From Tetmemena sp. SeJ-2015 (Eukaryota; Ciliophora; Spirotrichea; Sporadotrichida; Oxytrichidae), in NCBI GenBank assembly GCA_027382625.1, contig JAJKFJ010022155.1, forward strand, positions 1-64,000: DNA of 64,000 nucleotides, written 5' to 3'. Position numbers and translations under genes: made by a program. Below, one piece after another: positions 6,180-64,000 of the stretch (positions are counted from its first letter, which is position 1; the number at the start of each line of letters is the position of its first letter). Under the pieces are notes generated by a model. It saw nothing but the letters and a program-made list of their open reading frames with translations, searched no databases and had not been told where the DNA came from.

Positions 6180-6189
6180 CTTCCGATCT
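6180..6189 (+). other. Probable Illumina adapter remnant
   Basis: CTTCCGATCT replaces the expected monomer bases and is followed by AGTTTTCAAGG, as at the longer remnant at 2223. Confidence 0.75.
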
Positions 6190-7485
6190 AGTTTTCAAGG
6201 AAAACTTCTGCATTAGATCTGAAAAAATAGCCAGCCGATCTTCGATCTTTGATCTTAAATCTATTTTTTCCCATAAAGGTGATCATTTTTTGGGCTTGAG
6301 AATAAAAATGTATACACTTGATTTTAACTTCTGCAAAGTGGACCGACTCACTTTTCTCTCGACAGGCAACTCAGTTTTCAAGAAAACTTCTAGCATTAAG
6401 ATTTGAAAAAATAGCCCAGCGATCTCGATCTTTGATCTTTGTTAAATCTATTCTTTCCCATAAGTGATCATTTTTTGGGCTTTGAGAATTTAAATGTATA
6501 CACTTGTTTTCTAACTCTGTAAGTGGACTGATCACATTTCTCGAAGGCAAACTCAGTTTCAAGGAAAACTTCTAGCATTAAGATCTGGAAAAATAGCCCA
6601 GCGGTCTTCGATCTTTGATCTTAAATCTATTCTTTCCCATAAGGTGATCATTTCTTGGAGGCTTGAGAATAAAATGTATACCACTTGTTTTTTAACTTCT
6701 GAAAGTGGATGACTCAACTTTTCTCTCTCTCGAGAGGCAAATTCATTTTCAAGGAAACTTTAGCATAAAATTGAAAAAATAGCCCAGCGATCTCGATCTT
6801 TGATCTTAAATCTATTTTTTCCCATAAGGTGATCATTTTGAAGCTTGAGAATTAAAATGTATTCACTTGTTTTTAACTCTACAAAGTGGACGACTCAACT
6901 TTTCTCTCTCTCGACAGGCCAATTCAGTTTTCAAGAAAACTCTAGCATTAGATCTGAAAAATAGCCCAGCGATCTTCGATCTTTGATCTTAAATCTATTT
7001 TTCCCATAAGGTGATCATTTTTTAGGCTTGAGAATTAAAATGTATACACTTGTTTTTAACTTCTGCAAAGTGGACTGACTCAATTTTCTCTTCGACAGAC
7101 AAACTCAGTTTTCAAGGAAACTTCTAGCATTAAGATCTGAAAAATAGCCCAGCGATCTTCGATCTTTGATTTTAATCTATTCTTTCTCATAAGGTGATAT
7201 TTTTTTGGGCTTGAGAATTAAAAATGTATACACTGTTTTTAACTTCTGCAAAGTGGACTGACCTCACTTTTCTCTCCGACAGAAACTTCTAGCATTTAAA
7301 GATCTGAAAATAGCCAGCGATCTTTTGATCTTTGTCTTAAAATCTATTCTTTCCATAAGTGATCATTTTTTGGGCTTGAGAATTAAAACGTATACACTTG
7401 TTTTTACTTCTGCAAAGTGAAATTACTCACTTTTTCTCTCGACAGGCAAATTCAGTTTCAAGGAGAACTTCTAGCATTAAGATCT

Positions 7486-7498
7486 AGATCGGAAGAGC
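7486..7498 (+). other. Illumina adapter remnant (reverse orientation)
   Basis: AGATCGGAAGAGC, the universal start of Illumina adapters in read-through orientation, interrupts a monomer after AAGATCT. Confidence 0.9.
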
Positions 7499-9118
7499 CA
7501 GCGATCTTCGATCTTTGATCTTTAATCTATTCTTTCCCATAAGGGAATCATTTTTTGGGCTTGAGATATAAAAGTATACACTTGTTTTTTAACTTCTGCA
7601 AAGGGACTGACTCACTTTTCTTCGACAAGAGAATACCAGTTTTCAAGGACTTTCTAGGCATTAAGGATCTGAAAAAATAGCCCAGCGATCTTTCGATCTT
7701 TGATCTTAAATCTATTCTTTCCATAAGTGATCTTTGGTTGCAGCTTTTCTTGAGAATTAAAATGTATACATTTGTTTTTAACTTCTGCAAAGTGGAACTG
7801 ACTCACTTTTCTCTCGATAGGTAAACTCTTTCAAGGAAAACTTCTAGCATTAGATCTGAAAAAAATAGCCAGCGATCTTCGATCTTTGATCTTAATTCTA
7901 TTCTTTCCAATAAGGTGATCATTTTTTTGGGCTTGAGAATTAAAATTTATACACTTGTTTTTAACTTCTGTAAAGTGCTGCAAAGTGGACTGACTCATTT
8001 TCTCTCGACAGGCAGACTCAAGCTTTTCAAAGGAAACCTCTAGCATTAGATCTGAAAATAATAACCCAGCGGATCTTCGATCTTTGTCTTAATTATTCTT
8101 TCCATAAGGTGATCATTTTTGAGGCTTGAGAATAAAATGTATACACTTGGTTTTTAACTTCTGCAAGTGGATGAACTCACTTTTCTCTCGATAGGCAAAC
8201 TCAGTTTTCAAGAAACTTCTAGCATTAAGATCTGAAAAATAGCCCAGCGATCTTCGATCATTTTTTTTTTGATCTTAAATCTAATTTTTCAAATAGGTGA
8301 ATCATGTTTTTGGGGCTGGAGAATTAAATGTATACACTTGTTTTTCACTTCTCATATGTGCGACTGATCACTTTCTCTCGACAGGCAAACTCAGTTTCAA
8401 GAAACTTCTAGCATTAAGATCCGAAAAAATAGCCCGCGATCTTCGATCTTTGATCTAAATCTATTCTTTCCCATAAGGTGATCATTTTTTTGGGCTTGAG
8501 AATTAAGTATACACTTGTTTTTACTTCGCAAAGTGGATCTGACTCAAATTTTCTCTCGACAGGCCAACTCGTTTTCAAGGAAAACTTATAGCATTAAGAT
8601 CTGAAAATAGCAGCGTCTTCCGATCTTGATCTAAATTCTATTTTTCCCCATAAAGGTTGATCAATTTTTCTGGGCTTGAGATTAAAATGTATACACTTGT
8701 TTTTTAACTTCTGCAAATTGGACTGACTCACTTTTCTCTCGACAGGCAAACTCAAGTTTTCAAGGAAAACTTCTAGCATTCAGATCTGAAAAAATAGCCC
8801 AGCGATCTTCGATCTTTGATCTTAAATCTATTCTTTCCATAAGGTGATCATTTTTGGGGCTTGAGAATTAAAATGTATACACTTGGTTTTAACTTCTGCA
8901 AAGTGGGCTGACTCACTTTTCTCTCGATAGGTAAACTCAGTTCAAGGAAACTTTCTAGCATTAAGATCTCAAAATAGCCCAAGCGATCTTGTCTTTGATC
9001 TTAAATCTATTCTTTACCATAAGGTGATCATTTTTTGGGCTGAAGAATAAATGGTATACAACTTGTTTTTAACTTCTGCAAAGTGAACTGACTCACTTTT
9101 CTCTCGACAAGAAAACTT

Positions 9119-9130
9119 CTCTTCCGATCT
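9119..9130 (+). other. Illumina adapter remnant
   Basis: CTCTTCCGATCT sits where the monomer should read through AAACTTCTAGCATT, again an adapter 3' end fused to satellite. Confidence 0.8.
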
Positions 9131-12100
9131 AAAAATAGCCCAGCGATCTTCGATCTTTGATCTTAAATCTATTCTTACCATAAGGTGATCATTTTTTGGG
9201 CTTGAGATTAAAATGTATACACTTGTTTTTAACTTCTGCAAAAGTGGACTGACTCACTTTTCTTCTCGGCAGGCAAATCTGTTTTCAAGGAAAACTTCTA
9301 GCATAAGATCTGAAAAAATAGCCCACGATCTTCGATCTTTGATCTTAAATCAATTCTTTCCCATAAGGTGATCATTTTTTTTGGGCTTGAGAATTAAATT
9401 GTATACACTTGTTTTAACTTCTGCAAAGTGGACTGACTCACTTTTCTCTCGACAGGCAAACTCATTTCAAGGAATACTTCTAGCATTAATCTGAAAAAAA
9501 TAGCCCAGCGATTCGAACTTTGATCTTAAATCTATTCTTTCCCATAAGTGATCATTTTTTGGGCTTGAGAATTTAAATGTATACACTTGTTTTTAACTTC
9601 TCTGCAAAGTGGACTGACTCACTTTTTCTCTCGACAGGAAACTTCTAGCATTAAGATCTGAAAATAGCCCACGATCTCGATCTTTGATCTTATATCTATT
9701 CTTTCCCATAAGGTGAACATTTTTTGCTTGAGAATTAAAATGTATACACTTTTTTTTAACCTTCTGCAAGTGGATCTGACTTCACTTTTCTCTCGACAGG
9801 CAAACTCATTTTTCAAGGAAACTTCTAGCATTAAGAATCTAAAAATAGCCAGCGATCTTCGTTCTTTGATCTTAAATCTATTTTTCCCATAAGGTGATAA
9901 TTTTTGAGGCTTGAGAATTAAAATGTATACACTTGTTTTTAAATTCTGAAAAGTGGACTGACTCACTTTTCTCTCGAAAGGCAAACTCAGTTCTGGAAAA
10001 CTTCTAGCATTAAGATCTGTAAAAATAGCCCCCCGCGATCTTCGATCTTTGATCTTAAATTTATTTTTTCCCATAAGGTGATCATTTTTTTGAGGCTTGA
10101 GAATTAAAATGTATAACACTTGTTTTTAACCTTCTCAAAGTGGACTGTACTCACTTTTCTCATCGACAGGCAATTCAGTTTTTAAAAGGAAAACTTCTAA
10201 CGGAATTAAGATCTTAAAAAATAGCCCCAGCGATCTTCGATCTTTGATCTTAAATCTATTCTTTACCATAAGGTGATAATTTTTTGGGCTTGAGAATTAA
10301 CATGTATACACTTGTTTTTAACTTCTGCAAGTGGACGACTCCACTTTTTCTCTCGCAGGCAAACTCAGTTTTCAAGGAACTTTCTAGCATTAAGATCTGA
10401 AAAAATAGCCCAGCGATCTTCGACCTTTGATCTTAAATCTATTATTCTTTCCCATAAGGTGATCAATTTTTGGGCTTGAGAATTAAAATGTTAACACTTG
10501 TTTTTTAACTTCTGCAAAGTGACTGACTCACTTTTCTCTCGACAGGCTCTTAGCATTAAGATCTGAAAATAGCCAGCGATCTTCGATCTTTGATCTTAAT
10601 CTATTCTTTCCATAAGGTGATCATTTTTTGGGCTTGAGACTAAATGTATACACTTGTTTTTAACTTCTGCAAAGTGGACGACTCACTTTTCTTCGACAGT
10701 TCAACTCAGTTTTTCAAGAAACTTCTGCATTAGATCTGAAAAATAAGCCCAGCGATCTTCGATCTTTGAACTTAAATCTATTCTTTTTATTCTTTCCCAT
10801 AAGGTGAACATTTTTGAGGCTTGAGAATTAAAATGTATAACTTGGGTTTTAACTTTGCAAGTGGACTGACTCACTTTCTCTCGATAGGTAAACTCTGTTT
10901 TCAAGAAAACTTCTATTAAGATCTGAAAAATAGCCCAGCGATCTTCGATCTTTGATTTAATTATTCTTTCCCATAAGGTGATCATTTTTGGGCTTGAGAA
11001 TTAAAATGTATACACTTGTGTTTAACTTCTGCAAAGTGGAATGACTCACTTTTCTCTCGACAGGCAATATCCAAGTTTTCAAGAAAAACTTCTAGCATTA
11101 AGATCGAAAAAATAGCCAGCGATCTTCGATCTTTGATCTTCTGTTCTCTTTCATAAGGTGATCATTTTTTTTGGGCTTGAGAATTAATATATACACTTGT
11201 TTTAACTTCTGCAAAGTGGCGGACTGACTCACTTTCTCTCGATAGGTAACTCTGTTTCAGGAAACTTCTAGGCATTAAGAATCTCTCATAAAAAGCCAGC
11301 GTCTTCGATCTTGATCTTAAATCTATTCTTTACCATAAGGTGATCATTTTTTGGGCTTTGAGAATTAAAATGTATACACTTGTTTTTAACTCCTGCAAAG
11401 TGGACTGACTCACTTTTCTCTCGACAGGCAAAACTCAGTTTTCAAGGAAAACTTCTAGCATTAAGATTTAAAAATAGCTCAGCGATCTTCGATCCTTTGA
11501 TCTTAAATCATTCTTTCCCATAAGGTTGATATTTTGGGCTTGAGAAATTAAAATGTCACTTGTTTTTAATCTTCTGGCAAAGTGGGTGACTCACTTTTCT
11601 TTCGATGGCAACTCAGTTTTCAAGAAACTTCTCTAGCATATAGATTGAAAAAATAGCCCGCGGAATCTCGATTTGATCTTAAATCTTATTCTTTCCATAA
11701 TGTGATCATTTCTTTTGGGCTTGAGAAGTTAACATGTATACACTTGTTTTTAAAACTTCTGCAAAGTGGACAGACTCACTTTTCTCTCGACAGAAATTCT
11801 AGCATTAAGATCTGAAAAAGCCCAGCGATCTTCGAATCTTTGGATCTTAATCTATTCTTTACCATAAGGTGATCATTTTTTTGGGCTTGAGATTAAATGT
11901 ATAACTTGTTTATAATTCTGGCAAAGTGGCTGACTCACTTTCTCTCGATAGTAAAACTCTGTTTTCAAGGAAACTTCTAGCATTAAGATCTCAAAAAATA
12001 GCCCAGGGATCTTCGATCTTTGATCTTAAATTTAATCTTCATAAGGTGATCATTTTTGGGCTTGAGAATTAAAATGTATACACTTTGTTTTTAACTTCTG

Positions 12101-12400
12101 CAAAGTGAACTGACTCACTTTTCTCTCGACAGGAACTATTCTGAGCATTAAGATCTGATATATATACTCAAGCGAATTCTTCGATCTTTGATCTAAATCT
12201 ATCTTTACCATAAGGTGATCATTTTTTGGGCTTGAAAATTAAAATGTATACATGTTTTTAACTTCTGAAAAGTGGACTGACTCACTTTTCTTCTCGGCAG
12301 GCACTTCTAGCATTAAGATCTGAAAAATAGCCCAGCGATCTTCGATCTTTGATCTTAATTATTCTTTCCCATAAGGTGATCTTTTTTGGGCTTGAGAATT

Positions 12401-12408
12401 TCCGATCT
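12401..12408 (+). other. Short adapter-like remnant
   Basis: TCCGATCT replaces the expected AAAATGTATAC after GAGAATT. It is only 8 nt, so it is supported mainly by the other adapter scars in this array. Confidence 0.55.
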
Positions 12409-14159
12409 ACTTGTTTTTAACTTCTGCAAAAGTGGACTGACTCACCTTTCTCTCGACAGGCAAATTCAGTTTTCAAGGAAACTTCTAGCATTAAGATCTG
12501 AAAAAATAGCCCTGCGATCTTCGATCTTTGGATCTTAAATCTATTCTATCCCATAAGGTGATCATTTTTGGGCTGAGAATTAAATGTATACACTTGTTTT
12601 TAACTTCTGCAAGTGGATGACTCATTTTCTTCGATAGGCAACTTGTTTTCAAAGGAAACTTCTAGATTAAGATCGTCAAAAATAGCCCAGCGATCTTTGA
12701 TCTTTGATCTTAAATCTATTCTTTTCCATAGGTAATCATTTTTTGGGCTTGAGAATTATAATGTATACACTTGTTTTTAAACTTCTGCAAAGTGGACTCA
12801 CTACTTTTCTCTCGACAGGCTAACTCAAGTTTCCAAGGAAACTTCTAGCATAAGATCTTAAAAAATAGCCCAGCGATCTTCGATCTTTGATCTTAAAACT
12901 ATTCTTTCCATAAGGTGATTATTTTTTGGGCTTGAGAATTAAATGTATACACTTGTTTTTTAACTTCGCAAGTGGACTGACTCACTTTTCTCGCTCGAAC
13001 AGCAAATTCAAGTTTTTCAAGGAAAACTCTAGCATTAGTTCTGAAAAAATAGCCGCGATCTTCGATCTTTTTGATCTTAAATCTATCTTTCCCATAAGGT
13101 TGATCATTTTTTGGGCTTTAAGAATTAAAATGTATACACTTGTTTTTAACATCTGCAAAGTGGACTGACTCACTTTTCTCTCGACAGGCAAACTCAGTTT
13201 CCAAGGAAAACTTCTAGCATTAAGATCATAATAAAATGCGCGGATACTTCGAATTCTTTGATCTTAATTTCTATTTCTTTCATAGGTATCAATTTTTTGG
13301 GCTTGAGAATTACCAATGTATACCTTGGTTTTAACTTCTGCAAAGTGGAATCACATTTCTCTCGACAGGCAAACTCAGTTTTCAAGGACACTTCTAGCAT
13401 AAGATTCAAAAAATGCCCAGCGATCTTCGATCTTTGATCGTAAATCTATTTCCCATAAGGTGATCATTTTATTGGCTTTAGAATAAAATGTATACACTTG
13501 TTTTTACTTCTGCAAAAGTGGACTGACTCACTTTTCTCTCGACAAGGCAAATTCATTTTCAAGGAAAACCTTCTGCATTAAGATCCTGCAAAAATAGCCC
13601 GAGCTGATCTTCGTCTTTGATCTTAATCTATTCTTTACCATAAGGTGACATTTTTGGGCTTTGAGAATTAAAATGTATTCACTTGTTTTTAACTTCTGCA
13701 AGGTGGACTGACTCACTTTTCTCTCGACAGGCAACTCAGTTTTCAAGGAAAAACTTCTTGCATTAAGATCTGAAAAAATAGCCCAGCGATCTTCGATTTT
13801 GATCTTAATCTATTCTTTCCATAAGGTGATCATTTTTGGGCTTGGAGAATTAAATGTATACACTTGTTTTTTAACTTCTGCAAAGTTGGATGACTCACTT
13901 TTCTCTCGATAGGTAAACTCTGTTTCAAGGAAACTTCTAGCATAAAGTCTCAAAAATAGCCCAGCGATCTTCGATCTTTGATATTAAATCTATTCTTTCC
14001 CATAGGTGATCATTTTTTTTGGGCTTGAGAATTAAAATGTATGACACTTGTTTTTTCACTTCTGCAAAGTGGACTGACATTTTCTCTCGACCGGCAAACT
14101 CAGTTTTCAAGGAAAAATTCTAGCATTAAGATCTGAAAATAGCCCAGCGATCTTCGATT

Positions 14160-15350
14160 TTTGATCTTAAAAATCTATTTTTTCCCCAAAAAAAGGTGAT
14201 CATTTTTTGAGGTTTTGAAAAATTAAAAATGATACACTTTTTTTTTAAACTTCTGCAAAGGGGACTCACTTTTCCTCGACAGGCAAACTCAGTTTTCAAG
14301 GAAAAACTTCTAGTTTTTAAAGTTTCTAAAAAAAACCCCCAGCGATTTCAAATTTTTTATTTTTAAAATCAAATTTTTCCCCATCAGGTGATCATTTTTT
14401 GAGGCTTGGAATTAAAAGTAACACTTTTTTTTAACTTCTCCCCAAATTGGACTACTTTTTTCCCCGGACAGGAAAAATCTTTTCAAAAAAATTCGTTTAA
14501 AACCCTGAAAAAATACCCCAGCAAAATCTTCGTTTTTGATCTTAAATTTATTCTTTCCCATAGGTGTTTTCTTTTTGAGGTTAAAATTTAAAAATTTTTA
14601 ATACACTTTTTTTTAATTTCCCTGCAAAGTTTTTCCATTTTTCTCTGGACAGGAAAACTCATTTTTAAAGGAAAAAATTTAGATTAAGATCTAAAAAAAT
14701 GGGGCCACCACCCGACTTTATCTTAATCTATTCTTTCCATAAGGTGTTTCATTTTTGGGGGCCTGAAAATTTAAAATGATAACAATTTTTGCAAATGGAT
14801 TCTTTTTCTCCGACGGGCAAACCCTCAGTTTTCAAGGAAACTTCTGGGCTTAGACTGAAAAAATGCCCAGCATTTTCGATCTTTGATTTTTAAAAATCTT
14901 TTTTTCCCCCGGGGTGATCTTTTTTTAAAAGGTTTTAAAATTTTAAAATGTATACACTTTTTTTTTAACTTCTGAAAAGGGGCTCACTTTTTTTCTCGCC
15001 CGGGAAAACTGTTTTAAAGGAAAAATTTCTACCCCAAGTCTAAAAAATTACCCCAGCGATCGGTCTTTGATTTAAAACCCTTTTCCCTTCCCCATCAGGT
15101 GTTTATTTTTGAGGTTTGAGAATTAAAATTTATAAACCTTGTTTTTAACTTTTTGCAAAGTGGACTCACTTTTCTCCACAGGAAAACCTCATTTTTTCAA
15201 GGAAAACTTTTCTAGCATTAAAGATCAAAAAAAATACCCCAGCGATCTTCGTCTTTGATTTTTAAATCTATTTTTTTCCCATCAGGTATCTTTTTTAGGT
15301 TTGAGAAAAAAAAAATGTTTTACACTTTTTTTTAAACTTCTGCAAAGGGG
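14160..15350. repeat. Degraded distal end of satellite
   Basis: Monomers remain recognisable, but homopolymers are inflated and bases drift toward runs of A, T, C or G (TTTTTCCCC, GGGG, AAAAAA). This is the texture of a poor consensus rather than ordinary divergence, and it overlaps the last units of the array. Confidence 0.7.
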
Positions 15351-28452: not shown

Positions 28453-31400
28453 ATGAGCTCATCTCACCAACCCCTCAATCAATAATAGCAACAGTCTATG
28501 ACTTTTGCACAAACTCCTATATCTCAAGGCAATATAAATAATTACTAACCTGACCTTCAAGTCAACCCGTCTTTCATTCCTCATTCTTAAAATAATTAAT
28601 ACTCAATTATATATATTAAGCATTCTTAGCAGGTATAATATTCTCAGTTATTTTAATTTTGAGTTGAGTTAACAGAATCAATAGTAGCTTCTGGGAGTGC
28701 AATCATACTTCCCATATCTTACTTTTTAAATTTTAAGTGCAAGGACAAAACTAGAGTTTTATGGGAGCTACAAATATGACATCGATGCCTGCTCCTTAAA
28801 TATAGGGAGCGCACCACTTATCTCAATTCATGGAAAGACTACAGAATAGCCAAATTCAAAACGCATAGCAGAATAATCAAACTGGGTTCTCAGGTCCTCA
28901 CAGTGGACAGATAGGCAACAACTAGGGTTTGTCTCAGCAGCATATACAACCCCAACAGTCTGATTTATGTTTAGTATGGATCTCATAGTCAGACGCATTC
29001 AAACTAATTCTCAATGGGAGCTCAGCTCCAATAATTCAACAATCAGTCAATGCCTGCAAACCAAACTGCTAACTTATCAATGAGTCTCAATCAATCAAAT
29101 TTGAATTTCAATGCTGCCAACTAACCCTCCACCATCAACAACCACTTCACTAACAATACAAACAACATGTACTCCTGGAATGGAGTCATGGACTTCCTCA
29201 GAGATCAAGAGAGAAAAGCTCAAGACAGGGAGCAGAAACTTATTAACGACAAGAAACTCATAGAAGATAGAGTCAAGAATCTGGAGGACGAACTTAGGAA
29301 TCAAGTATCAAGTAAATAAGGACTTGGTAAAGAAGGTGAGGTTAATGGAGTACCAGATGCTCCAGCAGAAGAAGAGAATAAAGTAATGCGCACTAAACCA
29401 CAATCACTAACACTAAAGCTCTCATTAAGGTATAATTGGAACGATAGGTGCTTCTGGCGCTTCAGGAGGTAGTGGTAGTAACGGAACTGGTACCATCATG
29501 AGTTCTAATCCAATAAATCAAACTGCAACTAGTGGCTTGCTTGCAGCTATGGGGGCAGGATTCGGCTCTTCTTCAATCAACCAACTGCTGAGGAGACCTA
29601 AGAATGCTCGCCATCAAAGAGGAAACTCTGATGGAATCCAAAATATAGCAAGCAGGTTATTCACTAGTCATCACACTAGAGGTTCATCAGGTTCAAACGG
29701 ATAACTTATGAAAACCTTTGATGAAAATATAGAAGCAGGAGCTGCTTTGTTATCTTAAACGCTTGAGTTGGTTTAGGAACAAGCGAGCAACTCTAGAACC
29801 ATGGCTTAGCAATTCGCCAACTATCACAATGGAGGTCCTCATCATAACAAGACTCACTCCAGTGAAACTCAAGAGACAGTGGAAAGTCAATAAAACCTCA
29901 ACACCAAGATATTTAATAAACCTGAAACTTAAAATACTATGATTAACACAGGAAGTAAGTCTTAAACTTTAATGCTATATAAATTAATACTATAAATTTT
30001 AAATATGTTTTACATAATTCCAAGCAGTGGAACTGTGGCAGGAGGTAGTGTGAGCATCCCTCAAAAGAGAAGGCAGATAAGCAATGGATCGCAGATAAGC
30101 CAGCAACTTCAAATGGCAGCAGCTGCAGTTCATGAACATAATCAAGTTCAACCTTCAAGAATGAACACTTAGAATTCTCTTTAAACTAATAACAATACAG
30201 CCACCAACAACAATTAAATAACTACGATTACTACAACTACAACAATAACTCAGAGCACAGTTCCCAAGAATGGAGAGCCAGCCTAAATTACTTCTTAGAT
30301 TATAGGTCAAAGGAGAAAGTGGCTTGCTGATAGCTAACTCAGTACCGACCAGTCATAGCTCATGGACTCTCATATTCATGATAACCCTATCATTCAAGGC
30401 TCTCACTCGCTTGGAGCAGTCACTAATCCAAGAACTAGTGGATCTTATAATTTAAATATACAAATTAAAAATGAAATGTATTGTAGTAGACAAGGGCGAA
30501 GGGATAACTAAATTAGATAATTTAGATGCAACATGAAAGGAATTCAAAGCTGGACAGATCGAGCAATGCCCTAAATACTTCTTCAAACTCAGCTATATCA
30601 GGTGGAGCACTTCAAGTATGACAGTCAGCAAGAAGTCTTAAGCCTTCAGAAGATAAACCCTATTCCCAAAGTCTAAGTGTACTCTCAAGTCTCACTTTGA
30701 TTAAGTCAGAGGGATCAAAATTAAATAACTTATTTATGATCCATTTCTTGCCTTTATTCAATTCATTAGTGTCTGCAAGTGAAGATTGCACTCTGAAAGT
30801 GTGGGATGTAAACAAATTTTGCAACATCAGAGATGAAGAAGGAATGCTTAACTTCGAGCCTTACATTCATCTGAGAGGACATGTGGCTCCTATCTTGTCT
30901 CTCGCAGGAGCAGAAGCAACCAACTAAAGATCAATCCAAAATGTGATATTGAGTGGAGGCATGGATGGAGTTATTAAAATTTGGAAAGTGCCACAGACTC
31001 ATCAAGCAGAGATTTATGGAACAAACCAGGACAAGAGCAATATGAAAAATATAAATTTTTGTTTATCAATTGCTTCTGCTCTTGGGAAATGGCTCATGAG
31101 AAAGGAGCCTATTTGGGATTTGAGACTCCACTTTAAGCAGAGAACATCTTCTTGAGTTGTGCTTCTGACTAGTCTGTAGGATTGTGGCAGATTCCAAATG
31201 AGTTCTCAAGCTTTTAACTCGATGGAGCAGATGAGAACTACCTCAAACCCAGGAAGTCCATTAACAAGCAGTTACTTCTAGGTAGATTCAGAAAGCAGTT
31301 TGCTCACCAGATAAATAATTTATAGTTTTTGAGATTCTGTCACCAACAAGTGTGAGTTGGTTGCACAAAGATTCAACTCAATTCATAGTGAGCTACACTT

Positions 31401-32288: not shown

Positions 32289-34130
32289 TCATTTTTCGTT
32301 AGCTTCGAGAGTAGTGGCATCTTAACTATTTTATTATTCCTCTGTCTTAATTTAGAGTCTGCTCTCATTTTCTAAAAACTTTTGGTACTCTTTAGAAGCC
32401 CACAAGAACATGGGGCAGCAAGTACAATAACTGAACAACACAAAAGCAGTGAGACAGTAGCCAGAAAGCTCCGGATAAACCTTAGTTTGGAAATGGTCTC
32501 CAATTACTCCCAAGAGATAAGTAGCCAGAGCACCTGCCATGGCACCTAACAAAGTGAAGATAGCTACTGCAAGTCCTTGAAGTTCAGAACTGAAAATAAA
32601 CATACTTAAATAAATAATTTGCAAATCCTGTTGACAGCAGCATGAGCTGGTCCATACCACATCTCAGCTGTTAGATATGCTAGAAACAAGGATACCATAC
32701 TTAAGTAAAAGTTGACTTGAACTGAGTAGCAGAGAACGATAAACACACAAGAACTAAGGGCTCCATACCCACTAATGTAACCTTTAATTCTACAAATATT
32801 TAAACATATATTTTATTCTTGGGTATCTTGGCTCATAGAGATCAGTAATATACCCTCCCAAGTACGAGGAAGTAAGTCCTCCTACAATAACCACGAAAGC
32901 ATTCATAATAGAGTACTCATTAAATAAATGTATTAGTGTAGGTGGGGAAGTTGCCTTGAAAGAAAGTAGGTGACCAGAATCCAATTGCATAGCCTCCAAA
33001 GAATCTCAATGTAGAAGCTGTCACGTATAGTATATACACCTTACTTGAGAAAAGGATCTAAAAATTAAATATATCTTAAGTTTCTGAGAGAGTGGCATTA
33101 TTTTATCATCCTTTCTCTGTTTTAAATTAATGTGAGTAGTATTCTAAGTTTGAGTAGATTCTTTAGTTTTATTTTCTAGTCAATTAAAATAAATTTGCTA
33201 GTCCCACATGTTGATATTTGTTTTCCGATAAAGGACTAGCTTGCTAATAAAGTTGCTGGTAAACAGGAGATCCTTCAGTTACCCTCATATTTAGATGAGT
33301 CTTAGTAGTTTGGGTGATTCTTTTGGGTTCTTTGAATAAGATTATAGGTAAAGCGAAAACTATATTGATGGAGCAGACTATGATTACTGAGTTCCTCCAG
33401 CCCAGATACTTGTCCAGCAAGAGAGTAAGGGAACTAAGTCCTCCACCCAGATAAATTCCAAATGCAAAGAGACTGTTAGCTCTTCCTCTTTCTTTGTGAG
33501 GGAAGTAGTCATTTATAAGACTCACACTTACAGGGATGCATGCACTCATCAGAAAAGAGAAACCCATGCGAGGCAATAGCACTTACCAAAAGTTATGGGT
33601 GAAGGCAGTGGCCAAGCTCATCAAAGTCCAGGTCAAGGAAGTCACGAATAAAATGTATTTGCGATTGTACCTATCAGCATAGTATCCCATCAGTAAACCA
33701 AAAACTGAATTGGTCAGAGTAAAAACTGTTCCAGTCACAAGTCCATAAGTCTCCTGAGATAGTCCCAAGTCAACTCAATAATAAATTATGGTATAACTTG
33801 CATGTTAGTGTAGCCATCAGTGCCTGAAACCAAGTACACAAACACTATAAACATGAATCATTAAATTATATGTTTACAGTAAGTTTGCCACTGTGCTGAG
33901 ATATGATTAAGGAACAATACCCATATGTACAAGTTCTTTCTTGCAAAGCTTATCTCTTCGTTCTAGTTCTTCAAAGCTTAGTCTAAGTCATCATTAGGTG
34001 GTGTGATTATTTTTGAAGTATCAGATTTATTGTGTTAGAGATGGTCTTAATCCATTTTTGAATGAGAGGAGTGATCAGCTATTTGTAGTTTCGTTGATGT
34101 GTAAGGTGTATAATTTGTAGAGATATTCAT
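32289..34130 (-). CDS. Major facilitator superfamily transporter, spinster-like (7 IESs)
   Basis: An integral membrane transporter of about 565 residues and roughly 12 membrane segments; substrate not predictable. Start ATG at 34130 gives a hydrophilic Q/D-rich head (MNISTNYTPYTSTK) and then FARKNLYIWVLFLN. The N-terminal half carries VFVYLVSGTDGYTNMQVDLG, LSQETYGLVTGTVFTL and the MFS A motif GLLMGYYADRYNRKY, then LLPRMGFSFLMSACIPVS and the helix GRANSLFAFGIYLGGGLSSL. After a charged central loop the second half has LRFFGGYAIGFWSPTFF, GLTSSYLGGYITDLYEPRYP, AEMWYGPAHAAVNRIFSSE and LGAMAGALATYLLGVIGD, ending in an acidic tail with TGA at 32289. Seven IES removals are required, each giving continuous transporter sequence. 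Head to head with the HMA gene, 142 bp between the starts. Confidence 0.9.
32598..32626 (-). other. IES of MFS gene, 29 nt
   Basis: Pointer AAAT at 32594 and 32623. Removal gives HAAVNRIFSSELQGLAVAIF. An 11-nt alternative also keeps frame but leaves a longer, less family-like segment. Confidence 0.72.
32792..32819 (-). other. IES of MFS gene, 28 nt
   Basis: Pointer ATTCT at 32787 and 32815. Removal gives EPRYPRIKGYISGYGAL. Confidence 0.88.
32925..32928 (-). other. Zero-length IES (4-nt tandem pointer) in MFS gene
   Basis: TAAA is doubled at 32921-32928. Deleting one copy gives YTNTFNEYSIMNAFVVIVG; both copies cause a frameshift. It could also be a consensus insertion. Confidence 0.55.
33060..33076 (-). 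other. IES of MFS gene, 17 nt
   Basis: Pointer ATCT at 33056 and 33073. Removal gives SQKLKILFSSKVYILYV. Confidence 0.82.
33182..33203 (-). other. IES of MFS gene, 22 nt
   Basis: Pointer CTAGTC at 33176 and 33198. Removal keeps the central loop open: YQHVGLENKTKEST. Confidence 0.87.
33775..33797 (-). other. IES of MFS gene, 23 nt
   Basis: Pointer AAC at 33772 and 33795. Removal gives TNMQVDLGLSQETYG. Confidence 0.85.
33850..33870 (-). other. IES of MFS gene, 21 nt
   Basis: Pointer TATA at 33846 and 33867. Removal eliminates a TGA and gives TYCKHIVFVYLVSG. Confidence 0.78.
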
Positions 34131-35099: not shown

Positions 35100-36740
35100 T
35101 CACTCGTCTTCTTCTGCGGCTGCCTCTGGTTGCTGCTGATGCTCAACTATTTTAGGAGCATGTAGGGGAGTAGGCTATAAACAAGTTTAGAAGTTGAACG
35201 ATAAATCTTTTTAATATTCTAGTTGGATGAATAACTTACCTCTGGTTGTTCAATTTAGTCGATGGGATCTTTTTGGACTTCAGGGGGTTCAGTAGGGTTG
35301 AAGCACACATCACCTCTCTTGTGGCCGTAGCCCACGTAGATCGACTGGAACTTGCCAGTCTGAGAAACTGTGACTGCTCCAGGCCATCTCAAACTACGAA
35401 TAATGTTGACAGCATAAGAAACTGTGCCTTCCTTTGGAGGAACCTGAGCGAAGGGTTGAGGGTCTCCGCACACCTTAGAGTGCCATGCTGACTTGTATCC
35501 ATCAACAGGCACATCCTCGCTTGCTTAAATTAAATTATACTGTCTTGAACTTCTCACCCTCTGGGTCCTTTTCCTTAATCTTCTCATAAGCTTCTTTTTC
35601 CTCATCTGGTAGCTCTTCAAAGCCTGGAGGAACAATCAACACCAAACAACTATTTGAAAAATGAAGCTTAATATTTCTGTTGAACGTGAGTGACTCTTCC
35701 TGCCTTGAGAATCATGGGGTGTCTGTGGGTCCAGCTCTCTACACTTCTGAGTTCCTCAGTGCCTGGAACAGAGTAGTCTTCGCTGAACATCTCCTTGGCC
35801 ACTCCATTTTCATCCTCCTCAATCTTCAAGTAATCCTTAGGGACGAGGTGGCAACCATGAGTGATTCTTCCAATCTGAGCACGCAGGTAGTGTCTTTCTT
35901 TACCTGGGTATGGTGGGTTAGAGTCAATGGCAGCATTCAAATAATTTAAACTTATAATATATAAGGATCTGTAAATTATTTTGTGATTGAGGTTGCCAGT
36001 GAAGACGTGCTTGATCATCCTCGCAACTTGAATTTGTTCAGGAAGGAGGTCTGGTAGCTGTAGCCAGTCGTCAAGGATGTTATCAGTGACCCAGTACACC
36101 ATCCTGTTGACACCCTCTCCTCTCTTCTCCTGGTCGAAGCTCTGTCTGTTTTCTTCTTGAGTCTCTAGAACTCCCTCTGCCACCCAGTAGTCCTTCTCAG
36201 TAAACTTAAAATATGAAAAATTAATGGAAGCCAATTTATTGATTAAAGTTTACCATAGACTTTACCCCAGAATCTGAGTTAGCTTGCTCCAGAGAGAATT
36301 GCTAATCTCTTAAGAGAGTGAGCAAGCTTGGCAACTGTGTCCTCTCCAAAGACTACTCCAGCCCATTCAAACATTCGGTGTTCCTCTGCCAAATTGGGAA
36401 GTACAAATTGCTTGTTCCTTGAAAGCAAGTCCTTGTCGTCGCGGCTCAGCTAGTCATAAAATTAAATACTTTATTTAACTCAACGATCTAAAAGGAAGAT
36501 TAATTATTTGAAACATCCAAACGTTTCAAATTCAAAACAAACGCATAAAGATTCTTAAAACTTTTTTATAAAAGTGGGTATCTTAGTTTCAATATGATTA
36601 TTGCATTATTGAATGGTTGACTTACTCCTTGGATGAGGTTCTTGCTCTTTATTATCCACTGTTACTTTTGGGGGTCTCTCTGTTGGTGTTGGAGTGTATT
36701 GACTTCATGATCATAGGCAGGGTCTTTGATTTTCAAGTGA
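35100..36740 (-). CDS. Radial spoke head protein RSPH4/6 family, main body (scrambled gene)
   Basis: Radial spoke head proteins form the spoke head in 9+2 cilia. This minus-strand part begins inside the 15-nt inverted pointer at 36726-36740 and continues HLKIKDPAYDHEVNTLQHQQ. Family blocks follow in order: MFEWAGVVFGEDTVAKLAHS, QLRFWGKVYGTEKDYWVAEG, VNRMVYWVTDNILDDWLQLP, LPEQIQVARMIKHVFTGNLN, NPPYPGKERHYLRAQIGRIT, the acidic ENGVAKEMFSED region, then WHSKVCGDPQPF, SLRWPGAVTVSQTGKFQSIY and VGYGHKRGDVCFNP. It ends VEHQQQPEAAAEEDE at a TGA at 35100. Four IESs and two GT-AG introns must be removed. The first 60-odd residues are on the opposite strand at 36790-36989. Total about 485 residues, shorter than the human protein. 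Identification is strong. Confidence 0.93.
35175..35239 (-). other. Intron 2 of RSPH4/6 gene, 65 nt
   Basis: GTAAGT donor and TATAG acceptor on the minus strand. Splicing gives IEQPEPTPLHAPKIVE and the final acidic tail. Confidence 0.82.
35526..35541 (-). other. Short IES of RSPH4/6 gene, 16 nt
   Basis: Pointer CT at 35524 and 35540. Removal gives GEKFKTASEDVPVDGYKS. The 2-nt pointer makes the exact edge uncertain. Confidence 0.6.
35663..35672 (-). other. Short IES of RSPH4/6 gene, 10 nt
   Basis: Pointer AAT at 35660 and 35670. Removal restores the frame into SCLVLIVPPGFEELPDEE. Confidence 0.6.
35938..35988 (-). other. IES of RSPH4/6 gene, 51 nt
   Basis: Pointer ATT at 35935 and 35986. Removal gives HVFTGNLNAAIDSNPPYPG. 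Confidence 0.87.
36203..36252 (-). other. IES of RSPH4/6 gene, 50 nt, TA pointer
   Basis: Pointer TA at 36201 and 36251. Removal gives FWGKVYGTEKDYWVAEG, matching the family block exactly. Confidence 0.78.
36450..36625 (-). other. Intron 1 of RSPH4/6 gene, 176 nt
   Basis: GTAAGT donor and GACTAG acceptor on the minus strand. Splicing gives KNLIQGLSRDDKDLLS. Long enough to hide an IES. Confidence 0.8.
36726..36740 (-). repeat. Inverted 15-nt pointer, copy 2
   Basis: TTGATTTTCAAGTGA on the plus strand, the reverse complement of 36975-36989. It marks the 5' end of the second segment on the minus strand. Confidence 0.92.
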
Positions 36741-36789
36741 TGTATTTTTAAAAGTGAATAATTAAATTAAAATACAAGAGAGTTTAGAA

Positions 36790-36989
36790 ATGAGTGTGAA
36801 CCTGGACACCCTAGAGAAAGTTAAAGCCCAACTGAAAGAAGCCAGAGACCTAGGCGCAAATGTCAGCTTAGACCTGTACTAACACCTGACTGAGGTGTTC
36901 AATCGCATTATGCTCCATCACCCTGCTGATGCCTACCAAAAGTTTGAGGAGATCTCCCACCTCATCAAGTAGACTCACTTGAAAATCAA
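36790..36989 (+). CDS. First MDS of the RSPH4/6 gene, inverted
   Basis: ATG at 36790 opens MSVNLDTLEKVKAQLKEARD and the family N-terminal block SLDLYQHLTEVFNRIMLHHP, then AYQKFEEISHLIKQTHLKI. It runs into pointer TCACTTGAAAATCAA at 36975-36989. The same 15 nt stand in reverse complement at 36726-36740, where the minus-strand remainder begins. Joining through one copy gives IKQTHLKIKDPAYDHE without a gap. Read straight on, the plus-strand frame soon becomes AT-rich nonsense. The two parts of one gene therefore start back to back, 36741-36789 lying between them, and this segment must be flipped during somatic development. Confidence 0.92.
36975..36989 (+). repeat. Inverted 15-nt pointer, copy 1
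   Basis: TCACTTGAAAATCAA at the 3' end of the inverted first segment. Its reverse complement is at 36726-36740. This is the junction repeat guiding the inversion. Confidence 0.92.
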
Positions 36990-58810: not shown

Positions 58811-59119
58811 ATGTAGTGAGATCAGCTATACGCGAAAAGTGTGGGTAGCATTTATCAATCACTTTCAATAGTTGCAAAGGTCATTGCGAAGATACAGCAT
58901 GTCCAGAGGCACATCCTGAAATGGTTCGTCCAGAGTGAGCTGTCAGTGAGACATGTCAACACACAACATGCGTTTCAAAGTTCTGCTTCGAGCTGAGTCA
59001 TCTCTTACAGTGTCTATAGTTGATGAGAGTAAGTTCATCGACAGTCAAGTACAGGATGATAAGTAGAGGTAGGCATGCTCAACAAGATTCAACGTTGATA
59101 ACACGAACTAGAACTCAGA

Positions 59120-60457
59120 CATGACCGAATGTCAAAGTCTGTATCCAAGACTTGATGCTGAATAACCACAACGACTGCGTCTTTCTTTGGTCCAAGTCCT
59201 TGGATGCTCTGCGCTAAATCTGACCACGCTGCTCTCTAATAATAGAAAGGTAAACAATGACTTCACGACTGCTATGCTTGTACTTACTTGCCTCTCAAAC
59301 ACTGAGCGCTCTTGACTTTACGGCTTCAAGTATCCGAACAACTGCTCGACTGGGTTAACCAAGGTGAGTACTGAGCGTTGAAAGAGGACAATGACACTCC
59401 AACAACTTGCAAGTCTCGAGTACTTGCGAGTGGCGTGTAATGATGCGTTGGTCCATAAAGAGTGGATATCTTTGCCTTGCTCAGTGTGATAGTCTTACAC
59501 GTACAGCAGGTCCTGTTATTGAAAAAGTTGCTCAAAGACAGTTCGAGTCTACTCCTCCTCAAGATTTGAGTTGCAAAACTGGTGTGTGTCTTGAGAGATC
59601 GCTGATAGCAAGGACATGGAGTAACTACTGCTGTCGCTTCCTATCTTTCTCCCTGCACAGTCTCTGTGCCACTTGTCCGTACTTTCCCAGAGCTCTGCTC
59701 AACTCTGCGCGAGCGAGTTAAATTCTGTTGACCTCGTTGTCAGGTTGCTCCACTCCTGCATTCAACTCTTTGCTCTCATCTTCAGAGAGTGCAGCTACAA
59801 GTTCAACTTGCAAAGGTTTACCTTCAGAGTCATGTCAGCACTCTCTCGCTCTCTCTGTCTGAGTTGGACAGTGGTCCATTGGCTGATGAGTCCGATGAAG
59901 CAGCTCGTCTCTTAACGCTTGTAACTAGTTGAAGAAGTTGCTCCTCTCATCTTCTACCAAGGAGTGTAGTTGATTTGCCTGCATTTTTGAGTGGGACTGA
60001 CAGTTAGAACCTAATAACCAACATGAACAGTGCAAGTACTTTACTTGCGCGAACTGATCAAACTAACTAGTCAATCCTCCTCCTGCACTGCACACTCACT
60101 TTGTCGTTTGCTGCTCTCGCACCTGGGTGTCTGCGAGGTGTTGCAGAGTTCTGGCTGACGATGTCAAGTCCCTGCGGTGCGAGGTGTCTGTGGAACGCTT
60201 TGTTTCAAGACTGGTTGATACTTAGGCTCCTCATCTTCAAACTCATCTTCGTTATCCTGATCTCCACCTTGTACATTCTGAGATGCGAGCCAGTGCTCGA
60301 GTTGCTACTTGAGTTGGCGTTTAACAACTTTGGTAATTGATTGACCACGTGTGCGCTGTGTACTTACTAGTCCGAGCGAAGTTGCTCTCATCAAATGGCT
60401 GTATGATTATTGAACTTCAATAGAAACTGCCAAGCAACCTTGAAACCAAAGTGCGCT
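59120..60457 (-). mobile_element. Decayed DDE transposase copy A
   Basis: Minus-strand copy of the transposase encoded at 62.4 kb. It starts at the palindrome centre and reads, in shifting frames, the segment equivalent to the IDESNF region, WSIN, the acidic DEFEDEEP stretch, and further on TNASLHATRKYSRLA and NPVEQLFGYLK (59325-59358). The last two match the second Asp motif and the N-P-x-E-x-x-F/W-x-x-L-K motif typical of Tc1/mariner/IS630 transposases. Many one-base indels and TGA codons make it a pseudogene. It supplies the C-terminal part that lies beyond the window end for copy C. Confidence 0.75.
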
Positions 60458-60800
60458 TCCCTTTGCTCAAATCTCAAAGTACACAGGACAGATCAGCAGC
60501 TTAATGTATGGTGAGGTAAAGCGACTTTGGGTTGTCAAGGTTGCTTGGGCAGTTTTCTATTGAAGAGGTTTTCATAATCTATCAGCATTGATGAGAGCAA
60601 CTTCGGGTCTGATGCAATCAAGAAGAAGTAGACGACAGTGGTCAATCAATACCAAAGTTGTTAAACGCCAACATCAAAGTAGCAAGCTCGTGAGCCAACG
60701 CGACTCGCATCTCAGAAATGTACAAGGTGGAGAATCGCGATAACGAAGAATGAAATTTGAAAGGATGGGAGCCAAGTATCAACAGTCTTGAACTTTCACT
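60120..60800. repeat. Large imperfect palindrome of transposase copies
   Basis: The left arm (for example CATCTTCGTTATCC, CACCTTGTACATTCTGAGA) is the reverse complement of the right arm (CGATAACGAAGA, TCTCAGAAATGTACAAGGTG), with a centre near 60457. Confidence 0.8.
60458..60800 (+). mobile_element. Truncated DDE transposase copy B
   Basis: Plus-strand duplicate matching 63518-63810: the CTCAAATCTCAA, GCGACTTTGGG, CAAGGTTGCTTG and GATGAGAGCAACTTC landmarks and the AATGTACAAGGTGGAGA block are all shared. It contains insertions and frameshifts. It abuts copy A head to head, so 60120-60800 is an imperfect palindrome centred near 60457. Confidence 0.75.
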
Positions 60801-60807
60801 TGCTTCA

Positions 60808-60872
60808 TCCCTTACACCCGGGCCGCTTTTAAGCTACTCCCACCACTAAAGGCAAAGGGTGGTCCAGTTAGG
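60808..60872. repeat. Direct repeat, copy 1 (about 65 nt)
   Basis: Contains ACACCCGGGCCGCTTTTAAG, CTACTCCCACCA and AAAGGCAAAGGGTGGTCC. Nearly identical to 61047-61111, with a partial third copy at 60950-60985. Confidence 0.85.
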
Positions 60873-61046
60873 CTCGCTCCTGATCGAGGATCAAGGTTAA
60901 ATTCATACTAGCTACTATCGTCGTGTCATTTGCACCCTTAATTAAACTCGGGAGCCGCTTTTAAGCTACTCTCCCACCATACCACTGGCTATGAGCAGGT
61001 GTTTTCCCAACTACATTCACTAGCCCCCAGTTACTTAGCAGCTTTA

Positions 61047-61111
61047 TCCCATACACCCGGGCCGCTTTTAAGCTACTCCCACCAATAAAGGCAAAGGGTG
61101 GTCCGGTTAGG
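61047..61111. repeat. Direct repeat, copy 2 (about 65 nt)
   Basis: Differs from copy 1 at only a few positions (CATACACC for TTACACC, AATAAAGG for ACTAAAGG, CCGGTTAG for CCAGTTAG). GCTTTTAAGC within it is a short palindrome. May be a terminal or subterminal motif of the neighbouring element. Confidence 0.85.
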
Positions 61112-61189
61112 GCGTGGTACATAACCAGAGGAGAAAAGGGCGATTTTTCAACTTATTTTCATTATAAAATAATTTCATTATATAGAACA

Positions 61190-62404
61190 TTTCTCAAATT
61201 TTAAATATTCATATAGGGAGGACGACCACACCTGCGGACTACTTAAGCGCGGCGCCCACTGTAAGAGTTATAATTATTTATTTAAAATTTAGACGGCCGG
61301 AGGCTCTGCTTCTGACTTTGCTAGTTTCCATTCTTTGCATTTACTGAACCAATCTTTTGCTACTTTAATTAAATGGAACTTTCGCATTTAAAACCTTCGT
61401 CGCATTTATCTGAAGCCTGATAAGTTTGCTACTTCAATTAAATAAATCAAACTTTGGCTTTTACATTTAATGGAAGTTCAATTTATCTACAGCTTGATTG
61501 ACTCTGGGAGTTTCTCATTAAGCTTCTTCCATTTATGTAAAGTAGTCCAGGCTCTCATTTTCCATTTCAAACTTTTCAATTAAATAAATGGAGAGCCTAC
61601 AGGTGGAGTACTCAGCACTTTTAGATAATTTTCAATTCAATTAATTTCCACCTTTCAATAAATTAGATAAATGAGACTACAGCTATTTATGTGCGATACT
61701 ACTAACAGATTGATAAAAGTTATATAAATGCTGAGAGTGTCTCTCGTCTAAGCTCCATTTAAAATCTAAAACTCAATCAATAACAATAGTAAGTGCGCTT
61801 TTCATTGCATTTATTTTCTTCATTATTGGTCTTTATATTAACTTGGTCATTATAACTCACACTTATTTCAAACTCATTGGCTATATTTATATTAATCTAT
61901 TCAAATTTGAATTATAACTACGCAGCTCATTATAACTCTACTTTGTAGATAATAACCCCAACAGAGTACTGCCAACTACAACTAAGATGGAGACTTGCTG
62001 ACACGACGTGTGAGAGGTACCAAGCACGGTCAGCTCTATTTATATAAGTAAGTTGGGGGGAGTAGCAGCTTCGCGCGATAGTGGCCACATTAATATATTT
62101 AAAGCTACTGAGATCCCCGCTAAGCTAAATGAAAGGTGTGATTAGAAAGTTAGGGCTAGAGTTCAGAGTGAAGCTGAGTTGGAGTTGTAGTGAGCTCCAA
62201 ACAAGTTGAGTTGAGATGAGTAGAGTTGAGTTAGGTTGAGTGTGAGGAGTTAGCAGTTCACACTCTGTAAGTAGGGAGTGAGTTGAGCACTGTGAGTTCA
62301 AGTGGACTCTGCAAGGACTGCGTTCGAGTCACTGATTAAGATCGGGGTCAGTGGATACAAGGTAATCAAACTTGCTAATAATTATAATTATATTTATAGT
62401 AAAG
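61190..62404. other. Upstream region of transposase copy C
   Basis: Mixed sequence with a GAGTTGAG-rich stretch at about 62180-62260 and no supported gene. A short plus frame at 62302-62484 overlaps the transposase start and is probably a shadow. Confidence 0.4.
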
Positions 62405-64000
62405 ATGTGGACTCGCTTCAAGCGAACGGTGAACGCAGCCTCCAACCTCCTGGCCCGCAGTCCAGCCCAGAGCAACGAGAGTAGTCTCGATCGTACTCAA
62501 CTCAGCGACAGGAGTGAGTCAATCATCTCCAACGCTCTCCTCCAAACTCAAGCTCAAGGACCGGTGCGTGAGAGTCTGCTCCAGGACAAGCGCAAGACGA
62601 TCGTACTCTGGACGCCAGTCGTGATTGGCAAGAACTTCACTCACACTTTCACTGCCACTAAGAAAGAGTACTCGACAACCAGACAGATGCACCACATGCG
62701 CATACCAACTTCCTGCTTGGCCCTCGAAGGTGGGTTGATCATTGACTTGCCTCAAGTCGACGTTGAGAACAACTTGAACCTGATCCTTGAAGTTGGCAAC
62801 TTTGAAACGGATGAAGTATTGATCGAGTACTTGAGGACCTTGTACCTACGAATCAAGGATATGAAAGTGCAAGCTCGAACTGGCCAAGGTCAGCAGAGGC
62901 AGCTCGTACAACTCAGCTCCACGACAGGACCTCGCAACAACACGGAGGTATTTGATCCCGTGTAGAGAGCTCTTGATGCGATCCTCAACAGAGCAGTCCC
63001 AACATTGGAACCCGAGTTGGAGCAACTCATAAATCAACCCAGACTTAAACGCAGAGTTCAGAAGCGGTTTGAGAAGGAGTAGCTCGTTAAGCGTCTGTAC
63101 TTTCAAGAGCAAGTCAAACCCAAGCTGATTGCAAAGGAGGTGAAGATCTCACTTGATGTTGTCCGTGCCATCATAGTCAAGTGCAAGTGCATGCTCAAAG
63201 ATCAAAGCAGGAGGAGCAGAGGATAAGTCAGACCAGGACCACGAGGTTACAGTCGAGTAGAGTTGTGCGAAGCTATACAGAGGAGACTCGAACTTACTGG
63301 AGTTCATAAAGTAACTTTGGAAAGTTTGAGAGCTGGCATAGAGTAAGACATACTCAACAAGAAGATGGAACGAGAGTTAGCACTGGACGAAGAGATCAAG
63401 GATGAGCAAGCATCTCACTTGCAAGTCGGTAGTGCTGGCTCACGCTCACTTGCAAACTCAATCCCTTGCTAAGCAACTCTGGGCAAGATGCTGAAAGAGG
63501 ACTTCAAGTTGCAGTTCGGTGGCTTCCCTAGCTCAAATCTCAAGTACAAGGATCCTTAGTTTGATGAGAAGCGACTTTGGGTTTCAAGGTTGCTTGCGCA
63601 GTTTCTATTTGAAGAGTTCATAATCATCAGCATTGATGAGAGCAACTTCCGCTCGGACTAAATAAGCAAACGACAGTGGTCAATCAATACCAAAGTAGTT
63701 AAGCGTTAACTCAAGTAGCAACTCGAGCACGGGCTCGCATCTCAGAATGTACAAGGTGGAGATCGCGATAACGAAGATGAGTTTGAAGATGAGGAGCCAA
63801 GTATCAACAGTCTTGAACAAGAGCTGTTCCACAACACCTCGCATCGCAGCGGACTTGCTCCAGAGTAACTTGCAACACCTCGTAGACACCAGGTGCGAGA
63901 GCAGCAACGACAAGAGTTGAGTGCAGTGAGGAGGAGGATTGACTAGTTTGAGTTGATCAGTTCGGCAAGTAAGTACTTGCAATGTTCATTGTTGGTTATA
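62405..64000 (+). CDS. DDE (Tc1/mariner/IS630-type) transposase, copy C, cut by window end
   Basis: From ATG 62405 (MWTRFKRTVNAASNLLARSP) the frame is open for 532 codons to the window edge with TAA/TAG as Gln and no TGA. An N-terminal region of about 200 residues is not recognised. A helix-turn-helix-like part follows (KRLYFQEQVKPKLIAKEVKI, SLDVVRAIIVKCKCM), then PRGYSRVELCEAIQRRLELT, then the catalytic core start LLAQFLFEEFIIISIDESNF, in which the Asp of IDESNF is the first D of the DDE triad, and WSINTKVVKRQLKQQ. An acidic stretch (DNEDEFEDEEPS) lies inside the core. The remaining catalytic residues are past 64000, but copy A shows them. Open frame and Gln codons suggest recent activity. 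Germline ciliates carry such elements (TBE in Oxytricha). The C4A4 ends of TBE are not seen here. Confidence 0.8.

What the first reader, a model, noticed from the sequence alone, without database searches (positions are those of the whole stretch)
36726..36989. Scrambled gene: inverted first segment of a radial spoke protein with a 15-nt pointer
The N-terminus of the RSPH4/6 protein is encoded on + at 36790-36989 and the rest on - from 36740 leftward. TCACTTGAAAATCAA closes the first and its reverse complement opens the second. Joining through one copy gives a continuous family-like sequence (IKQTHLKIKDPAYDHE). The two halves start back to back with 49 nt between, so somatic DNA must be made by inversion, not simple deletion.
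Basis: partly seen in the sequence, partly recalled or inferred. Interest (0 to 1): 0.92.

Follow-up and report, generated by a model that had tools for sequence, protein, structure and literature searches.

The report
Ciliate gene with flipped first segment
In this ciliate DNA the first 200 coding bases of a radial-spoke (cilium) protein gene lie back to front beside the rest, with the same 15 letters at both cut ends, so the cell would likely have to flip that piece to build a working gene; scrambled genes of this sort are already well known in ciliates.

Summary
The first segment (MDS1) of an RSPH4/6 gene reads on + (36790-36989); the rest reads on - from 36740. TCACTTGAAAATCAA ends the first and, inverted, opens the second. 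Joined through one copy, with two introns and five short conventional IESs removed, the gene gives 474 aa, 69% identical over 476 columns to a Stylonychia lemnae protein that reads KQTHLKIKDPAYD straight through the junction. The flip alone, with nothing removed, restores the frame across the break. The 15-nt pointer contrasts with 1-4 nt at the five other IESs, as published averages for scrambled and non-scrambled pointers predict. The same assembly holds an HSP70 gene with inverted pieces and a kinesin gene out of order. A paralogue is split at almost the same codon, but in one orientation and over 7.1 kb. Inverted MDSs are a known kind (S. lemnae actin I), so this is a new, unusually simple member. 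Extra interest: only 49 nt separate start codon and second pointer, and two paralogues break at nearly one place in different ways.

The parts
36790..36989 (+). Coding part of MDS1 (residues 1-66 and two bases of codon 67), inverted relative to the rest; includes its pointer copy
   Evidence: tblastn of S. lemnae P0001 residues 1-66 matches here at 80% on +; the only other first-segment match of comparable identity in the assembly is the paralogue on C3013, 67%
36975..36989 (+). Pointer copy 1, TCACTTGAAAATCAA, end of MDS1
36726..36740 (-). Pointer copy 2, same 15 letters on the minus strand, start of MDS2
36741..36789 (+). 49-nt gap between pointer copy 2 and the ATG, 16% GC; predicted 5' leader (where the telomere would be added is unknown)
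36479..36740 (-). MDS2 with its pointer copy; holds GT-AG intron 1 (36488-36625, 138 nt)
36450..36478 (-). Conventional IES, 29 nt, 14% GC, pointer AG
36252..36449 (-). MDS3 (coding)
36202..36251 (-). Conventional IES, 50 nt, 18% GC, pointer TA, ends TAAACTT...AAGTTTA
35986..36201 (-). MDS4 (coding)
35935..35985 (-). Conventional IES, 51 nt, 16% GC, pointer AAT
35683..35934 (-). MDS5 (coding)
35631..35682 (-). Conventional IES, 52 nt, 27% GC, pointer GTTC
35538..35630 (-). MDS6 (coding)
35522..35537 (-). Shortest and least certain IES, 16 nt, 12% GC, 1-nt pointer; cutting one or two bases to the side gives a slightly different residue
35100..35521 (-). MDS7, coding to the TGA at 35100-35102; holds GT-AG intron 2 (35175-35239, 65 nt). 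Its 3' end beyond the stop is not defined

Best explanation
This is most likely the germline copy of an RSPH4/6-type radial spoke gene of a Stylonychia-like ciliate: its first segment lies inverted beside the rest, and it is predicted to be rebuilt in the somatic nucleus by flipping that segment at a 15-nt pointer. Shown in the sequence: the two orientations, the inverted 15-nt repeat at the exact coding break, five short conventional IESs, and that flipping 36726-36989 restores the frame across the break with nothing removed. Inferred from published work on Stylonychia and Oxytricha: conventional IESs go first, then an RNA template from the old somatic nucleus lines up the pointer copies, recombination through them inverts MDS1 (or, equivalently, the rest of the gene), and telomeres are added to give a gene-sized chromosome.
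For: Joined product of 474 aa with one stop, at its end, 306.9 bits to PF04712 against a cut-off of 25.7, 69% identical over 476 columns to S. lemnae P0001 and continuous through the junction. Of the 120 listed homologues (183 found), 48 align across residues 45-85 of the join, 37 of these without a gap at residues 56-76. Pointer 15 nt here against 1-4 nt at the five other IESs, where published averages are 9 and 4 bp and scrambled genes range over 3-19 bp (PMC2394655, passages and section 4). Other scrambled loci in the assembly: HSP70 on C2168 with pieces on the opposite strand and shared words of 9-13 nt, kinesin on C1665 out of order with a 13-nt shared word. The paralogue on C3013 is also split after about residue 66, with a 12-nt repeat.
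Against: No somatic sequence of this species was available; the junction was inferred through proteins of relatives. No second allele confirms the arrangement and no reads could be checked. Strand switches are rare in the sample: 1 of 65 multi-piece loci of three families (short inverted pieces would be missed). The organism is not identified.
Confidence: 0.9

Rival explanations
1. Misassembly: in the real germline MDS1 is colinear with the rest and a short piece was inverted at the 15-nt repeat by the assembler or by a chimeric read.
For: Single locus, no second allele found, no reads available; most multi-piece loci sampled show no flip.
Against: A 15-nt repeat is short to mislead an assembler (inference). 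Flips are not scattered: 0 of 20 actin-family, 0 of 41 kinesin and 1 of 4 HSP70 multi-piece loci, and the HSP70 flip has shared words of 9-13 nt at its borders. If colinear, the gene would need only an ordinary IES, yet the pointer has the length typical of scrambled junctions.
Confidence: 0.07
2. Two separate genes or a dead fragment: the plus-strand piece is a stand-alone N-terminal gene or relic, and the minus-strand gene has its own start.
For: Each piece is open on its own strand.
Against: Full-length relatives carry both parts in one protein. MDS1 read straight on runs into A/T-rich sequence, and the frame upstream of MDS2 shows no family-like N-terminus. Both pointer copies are in register with the same residues. 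No other copy of comparable identity for the first segment was found in the assembly apart from the paralogue's.
Confidence: 0.02
3. The 15-nt inverted repeat is a chance or unrelated repeat, and the halves are joined at another point or by trans-splicing of RNA.
For: Inverted 15-mers occur at six other places in 15401-64000.
Against: 0 of 3000 simulated neighbourhood pairs reached 15 nt, and the repeat lies exactly where the protein similarity switches strand. I know of no established trans-splicing of split coding exons of this kind in hypotrichs (recall, not searched).
Confidence: 0.01

Closest known systems
Scrambled actin I gene of Stylonychia lemnae (order 3-4-5-6-7-8-10 with 2 and 1 inverted, then 9; PMC2394655, section 4)
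   Same: The 5'-most segments are inverted relative to the body; long pointer at the inverted junction (19 nt between MDS 2 and 3) and mostly short ones at conventional IESs.
   Different: Actin I also needs a permutation (segment 9) and two inverted segments; here there is one inverted segment and no permutation. The actin-family loci sampled in this assembly were in order on one strand; orthology to actin I was not established.
Scrambled loci of Oxytricha trifallax and Tetmemena sp. (PMC9797194, abstract and sections 6, 7, 9)
   Same: Segments needing inversion, pointers kept in position while letters change.
   Different: Many of those genes are far more broken up; this one has a single scrambled junction.
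Inversion-type scrambled nanochromosomes of Strombidium cf. sulcatum, Halteria grandinella, Euplotes vannus and O. trifallax (PMC10901763, passages)
   Same: MDSs in different orientation (their Fig. 6B legend); inversion alone is 69.4, 37.7, 45.0 and 21.4% of scrambled nanochromosomes.
   Different: Different species; this gene was not named there in what I saw.
Nested (Russian doll) loci of Oxytricha and Tetmemena (PMC9797194, passages)
   Same: The paralogue on C3013 has other coding sequence, including an RCC1-repeat frame, between its MDS1 and MDS2.
   Different: The window's gene has only 49 nt between ATG and MDS2, so it is not nested.

Membership tests
Scrambled ciliate gene with an inverted MDS | Coding segments of one gene lie in opposite orientation in germline DNA | tested here: met
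[quoted passage not shown]
   15 nt, coding bases 186-200
Scrambled ciliate gene with an inverted MDS | Pointer length in the scrambled range (3-19 bp, average 9) | tested here: met
   15 nt
Scrambled ciliate gene with an inverted MDS | Joined order gives a conserved continuous protein | tested here: met
   474 aa, 69% to S. lemnae P0001
Scrambled ciliate gene with an inverted MDS | Somatic chromosome with a single pointer copy at the junction | not testable with these tools
   No somatic DNA of this species held; junction absent from the assembly
Scrambled ciliate gene with an inverted MDS | Germline (not somatic) origin of the contig | tested here: inconclusive
   72.4-kb contig with IES-like inserts and a 183-bp satellite points to germline; nucleus of origin not stated
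Scrambled ciliate gene with an inverted MDS | Telomere addition site before MDS1 | not testable with these tools
   Needs the somatic chromosome end
RSPH4/6 radial spoke head protein (PF04712) | Profile match over the curated cut-off for the joined protein | tested here: met
   306.9 bits against 25.7. The first 66 residues alone score 22.2, below the cut-off

The most novel reading that the evidence does not exclude
One conservative flip does everything: recombination between the two inverted pointers turns MDS1 round without excising anything, so the somatic chromosome keeps both pointer copies, one at the junction and the other, reversed, 49 nt before the start codon, against the rule that only one copy stays. 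The paralogue, broken at a site that overlaps this one by 3 nt, would show a shared ancestral junction resolved in two ways: inversion here, other genes in between there.
Probability: 0.2. Interest if true: 0.6.

Novelty: new member of a known kind. Interest (0 to 1): 0.33.

Why it matters
It is close to the simplest scrambled gene possible: one inverted segment, one long pointer, five conventional IESs as internal controls, and a paralogue broken at almost the same codon without inversion. That makes it a clean test bed for how inversion junctions arise and are resolved, and for whether the second pointer copy can survive into the somatic chromosome. It does not change what is known about scrambling.

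Tried and rejected
Actin as a positive control: I hoped to meet the published inverted S. lemnae actin I order, but 0 of 20 multi-piece actin-family loci is strand-switched, and the three loci looked at more closely (C2293, C3003, C3061) gave pieces in one order and strand. They serve only as a control against random flips. Kinesin C3003, flagged as order-changed, is two neighbouring genes and was not counted as scrambled.

A second inverted repeat in the window (CGAAGTTGCTCTCATCAA, 60377-60394 and 60588-60605) was considered as another inverted pointer. None of the eight ORFs tested from 58950-63998 matched a Pfam family, and the neighbouring translations look alike beyond the repeat, so I read it as part of a repeat element and dropped it.

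GT-AG introns were considered for the five short interruptions. At 36202-36251 a GT-AG cut is possible but breaks the frame (worked out by eye); at the others the removed stretch does not start with GT and end with AG.

The coincidence of the two paralogues' breaks: with about six breaks in some 1420 coding bases, an overlap with this pointer by chance is of the order of 1 in 10 (my estimate, no call), so shared ancestry is only suggestive.

Organism: not identified. Code 6 fits, and the closest named protein is from S. lemnae; 69% identity argues against that species itself. Rfam (gathering scores) and ARAGORN found nothing in the window. A genome search with PF04712 itself did not complete.

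Full report
What was checked. The window is the first 64,000 bases of a 72.4-kb contig (C3027) of an unnamed 146.2-Mb assembly in 5213 contigs. The gene reads with TAA and TAG as glutamine and TGA as stop (code 6). TCACTTGAAAATCAA is at + 36975-36989 and inverted at 36726-36740, once each in the window and 8 times in the assembly. The start codon is at 36790, so 49 nt lie between it and the second pointer copy. The coordinates of the finding are correct.

Gene model. On the minus strand from 36740 the rest of the gene runs to a TGA at 35100-35102. Aligned to S. lemnae P0001 it needs two GT-AG introns (138 and 65 nt) and five conventional IESs of 29, 50, 51, 52 and 16 nt, 12-27% GC, with pointers AG, TA, AAT, GTTC and A. 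The 50-nt one begins TAAACTT and ends AAGTTTA. The 16-nt one is the least certain. The product is 474 aa with one stop, at its end, and scores 306.9 bits against the radial spoke profile PF04712, cut-off 25.7. It is 69% identical over 476 columns to P0001, 92% over 317 to P0002 (a partial protein of an unnamed relative) and 58% over 474 to a second S. lemnae protein, P0003. P0001 comes from a 2233-bp contig, a size that fits a gene-sized somatic chromosome (inference), and reads EEISHLVKQTHLKIKDPAYDYEVN across the junction; the join in the window gives EEISHLIKQTHLKIKDPAYDHEVN. The protein search found 183 homologues and listed 120. Of those 120, 48 align across residues 45-85 of the join and 37 of the 48 have no gap at residues 56-76; the other 72 do not align across that stretch in one piece, and I did not sort out why.

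Is the join more than chance? In 3000 simulated pairs of 75-nt neighbourhoods none shared 15 letters; the longest was 12. Inverted 15-mers alone are no proof: seven lie in 15401-64000, the others A/T-rich or part of a repeat stretch. What sets this one apart is its place: it covers coding bases 186-200, from the last base of codon 62 to the second base of codon 67, and each copy is in frame with its own half. Flipping 36726-36989 in a script, with nothing deleted, gives one open frame across the break on the minus strand, which neither unflipped strand has.

Is the assembly to be trusted here? No second allele was found and reads are not available. But other loci show the same kind of structure. 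On C2168 an HSP70 gene has pieces on + at 8.8-10.4 kb and a piece on - at 13.06-13.15 kb (the last a weak match on its own, E 7e-4). At the borders lie shared words of 13 (AGGATATCCTTCT), 12, 11, 10 and 9 nt in opposite orientation. On C1665 the last part of a kinesin motor precedes the first, with a 13-nt shared word at the borders. Over three families, 1 of 65 multi-piece loci is strand-switched and 1 is out of order (after setting aside C3003, two adjacent genes). Short displaced pieces would escape this count, and only the best candidates were scored, so it is a lower bound. The joined junction does not occur in the assembly, as expected if somatic DNA was not assembled.

The paralogue. 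The closest relative in the assembly lies on C3013, with a second partial copy on C4824, 97% identical over the two aligned stretches, that ends before MDS1. Its MDS1 (ATG at 87240, minus strand) ends in TAAGAATCCCAT at 87043-87032, and the same 12 letters open its next segment at 79919-79908. The orientation is the same; 7112 bp lie between, holding other open frames, one of them with RCC1 repeats (67.1 bits to PF00415, cut-off 21.7). In protein register its pointer covers the last base of codon 66 to the second base of codon 70 and overlaps the window's pointer by 3 nt (by eye). Published work reports that pointer positions are often conserved while the letters change, scrambled ones most (PMC9797194, section 9; that is between orthologues of two species, not paralogues). 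A shared ancestral break, later inverted in one copy and filled with other genes in the other, is attractive, but a chance overlap has odds of roughly 1 in 10 by my estimate.

The leader. Feng et al. give a median of 54 bp from telomere to start codon in Euplotes woodruffi single-gene chromosomes, about half that of Oxytricha (PMC9797194, section 6). With 49 nt before MDS2 begins, either the leader is short, or it comes from one more segment, or the flip is conservative and the leader runs on through the second pointer copy, which after the flip stands 49 nt before the ATG. This is the most testable open point.

How it works. By analogy with S. lemnae actin I, whose MDSs 1 and 2 are inverted and where conventional IESs are usually removed before inversion (PMC2394655, abstract, passages and section 4), I expect conventional excision first and then template-guided recombination through the 15-nt pointer. 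Average pointer length there is 4 bp between non-scrambled and 9 bp between scrambled segments; the contrast within this one gene, 1-4 against 15 nt, fits. The steps of the process in this species are inferred, not seen.

Place among known things. Scrambled genes are established: 13.6% of Tetmemena and 15.6% of Oxytricha genes (PMC9797194, abstract and section 7). Inversion alone makes up 21.4% of scrambled O. trifallax nanochromosomes and 69.4% in Strombidium cf. sulcatum (PMC10901763, passages). A search of the held library for papers with radial spoke, scrambled, macronuclear and micronuclear together found none; genome-wide supplementary tables were not searched, so this gene may well be listed somewhere in a relative. 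Verdict: a true, tidy new member of a known kind.

Noticed in passing
G000 C2168:8786-10448 (+) and about 13059-13207 (-), locus L043: HSP70 gene with pieces interleaved between two clusters on opposite strands, shared words of 13, 12, 11, 10 and 9 nt at the borders: a more complex inverted scrambled gene.
   Followed up: partly
G000 C1665:3918-5719, locus L044: Kinesin motor with its last part upstream of its first part on the same strand, 13-nt shared word CTCTCTGCTTTGG at 3918 and 5707.
   Followed up: partly
G000 C3013:79908-87240, loci L021 and L022: RSPH paralogue whose MDS1 and MDS2 are 7.1 kb apart in one orientation (12-nt pointer) with other coding sequence, including an RCC1-repeat frame, between them: a likely nested locus.
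   Followed up: partly
G000 C4824:9391-10018 against C3013:79472-79514: The two copies of the paralogue differ by a stretch of about 585 bp next to or inside an IES, between two blocks of 96.6 and 97.3% identity.
   Followed up: no
window 492-15347: Satellite of about 183 bp in several arrays; the contig begins with 227 A.
   Followed up: no
window 60377-60394 and 60588-60605: 18-nt inverted repeat in a G+C-richer stretch (58-64 kb) without Pfam family; neighbouring translations resemble each other on both strands.
   Followed up: partly
window 36202-36251: TA-flanked 50-nt IES with short terminal inverted repeats TAAACTT and AAGTTTA.
   Followed up: no
window 30622-31152 (+) and 33109-33774 (-): Neighbouring open frames with WD40 repeats and with a major facilitator superfamily domain.
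   Followed up: no
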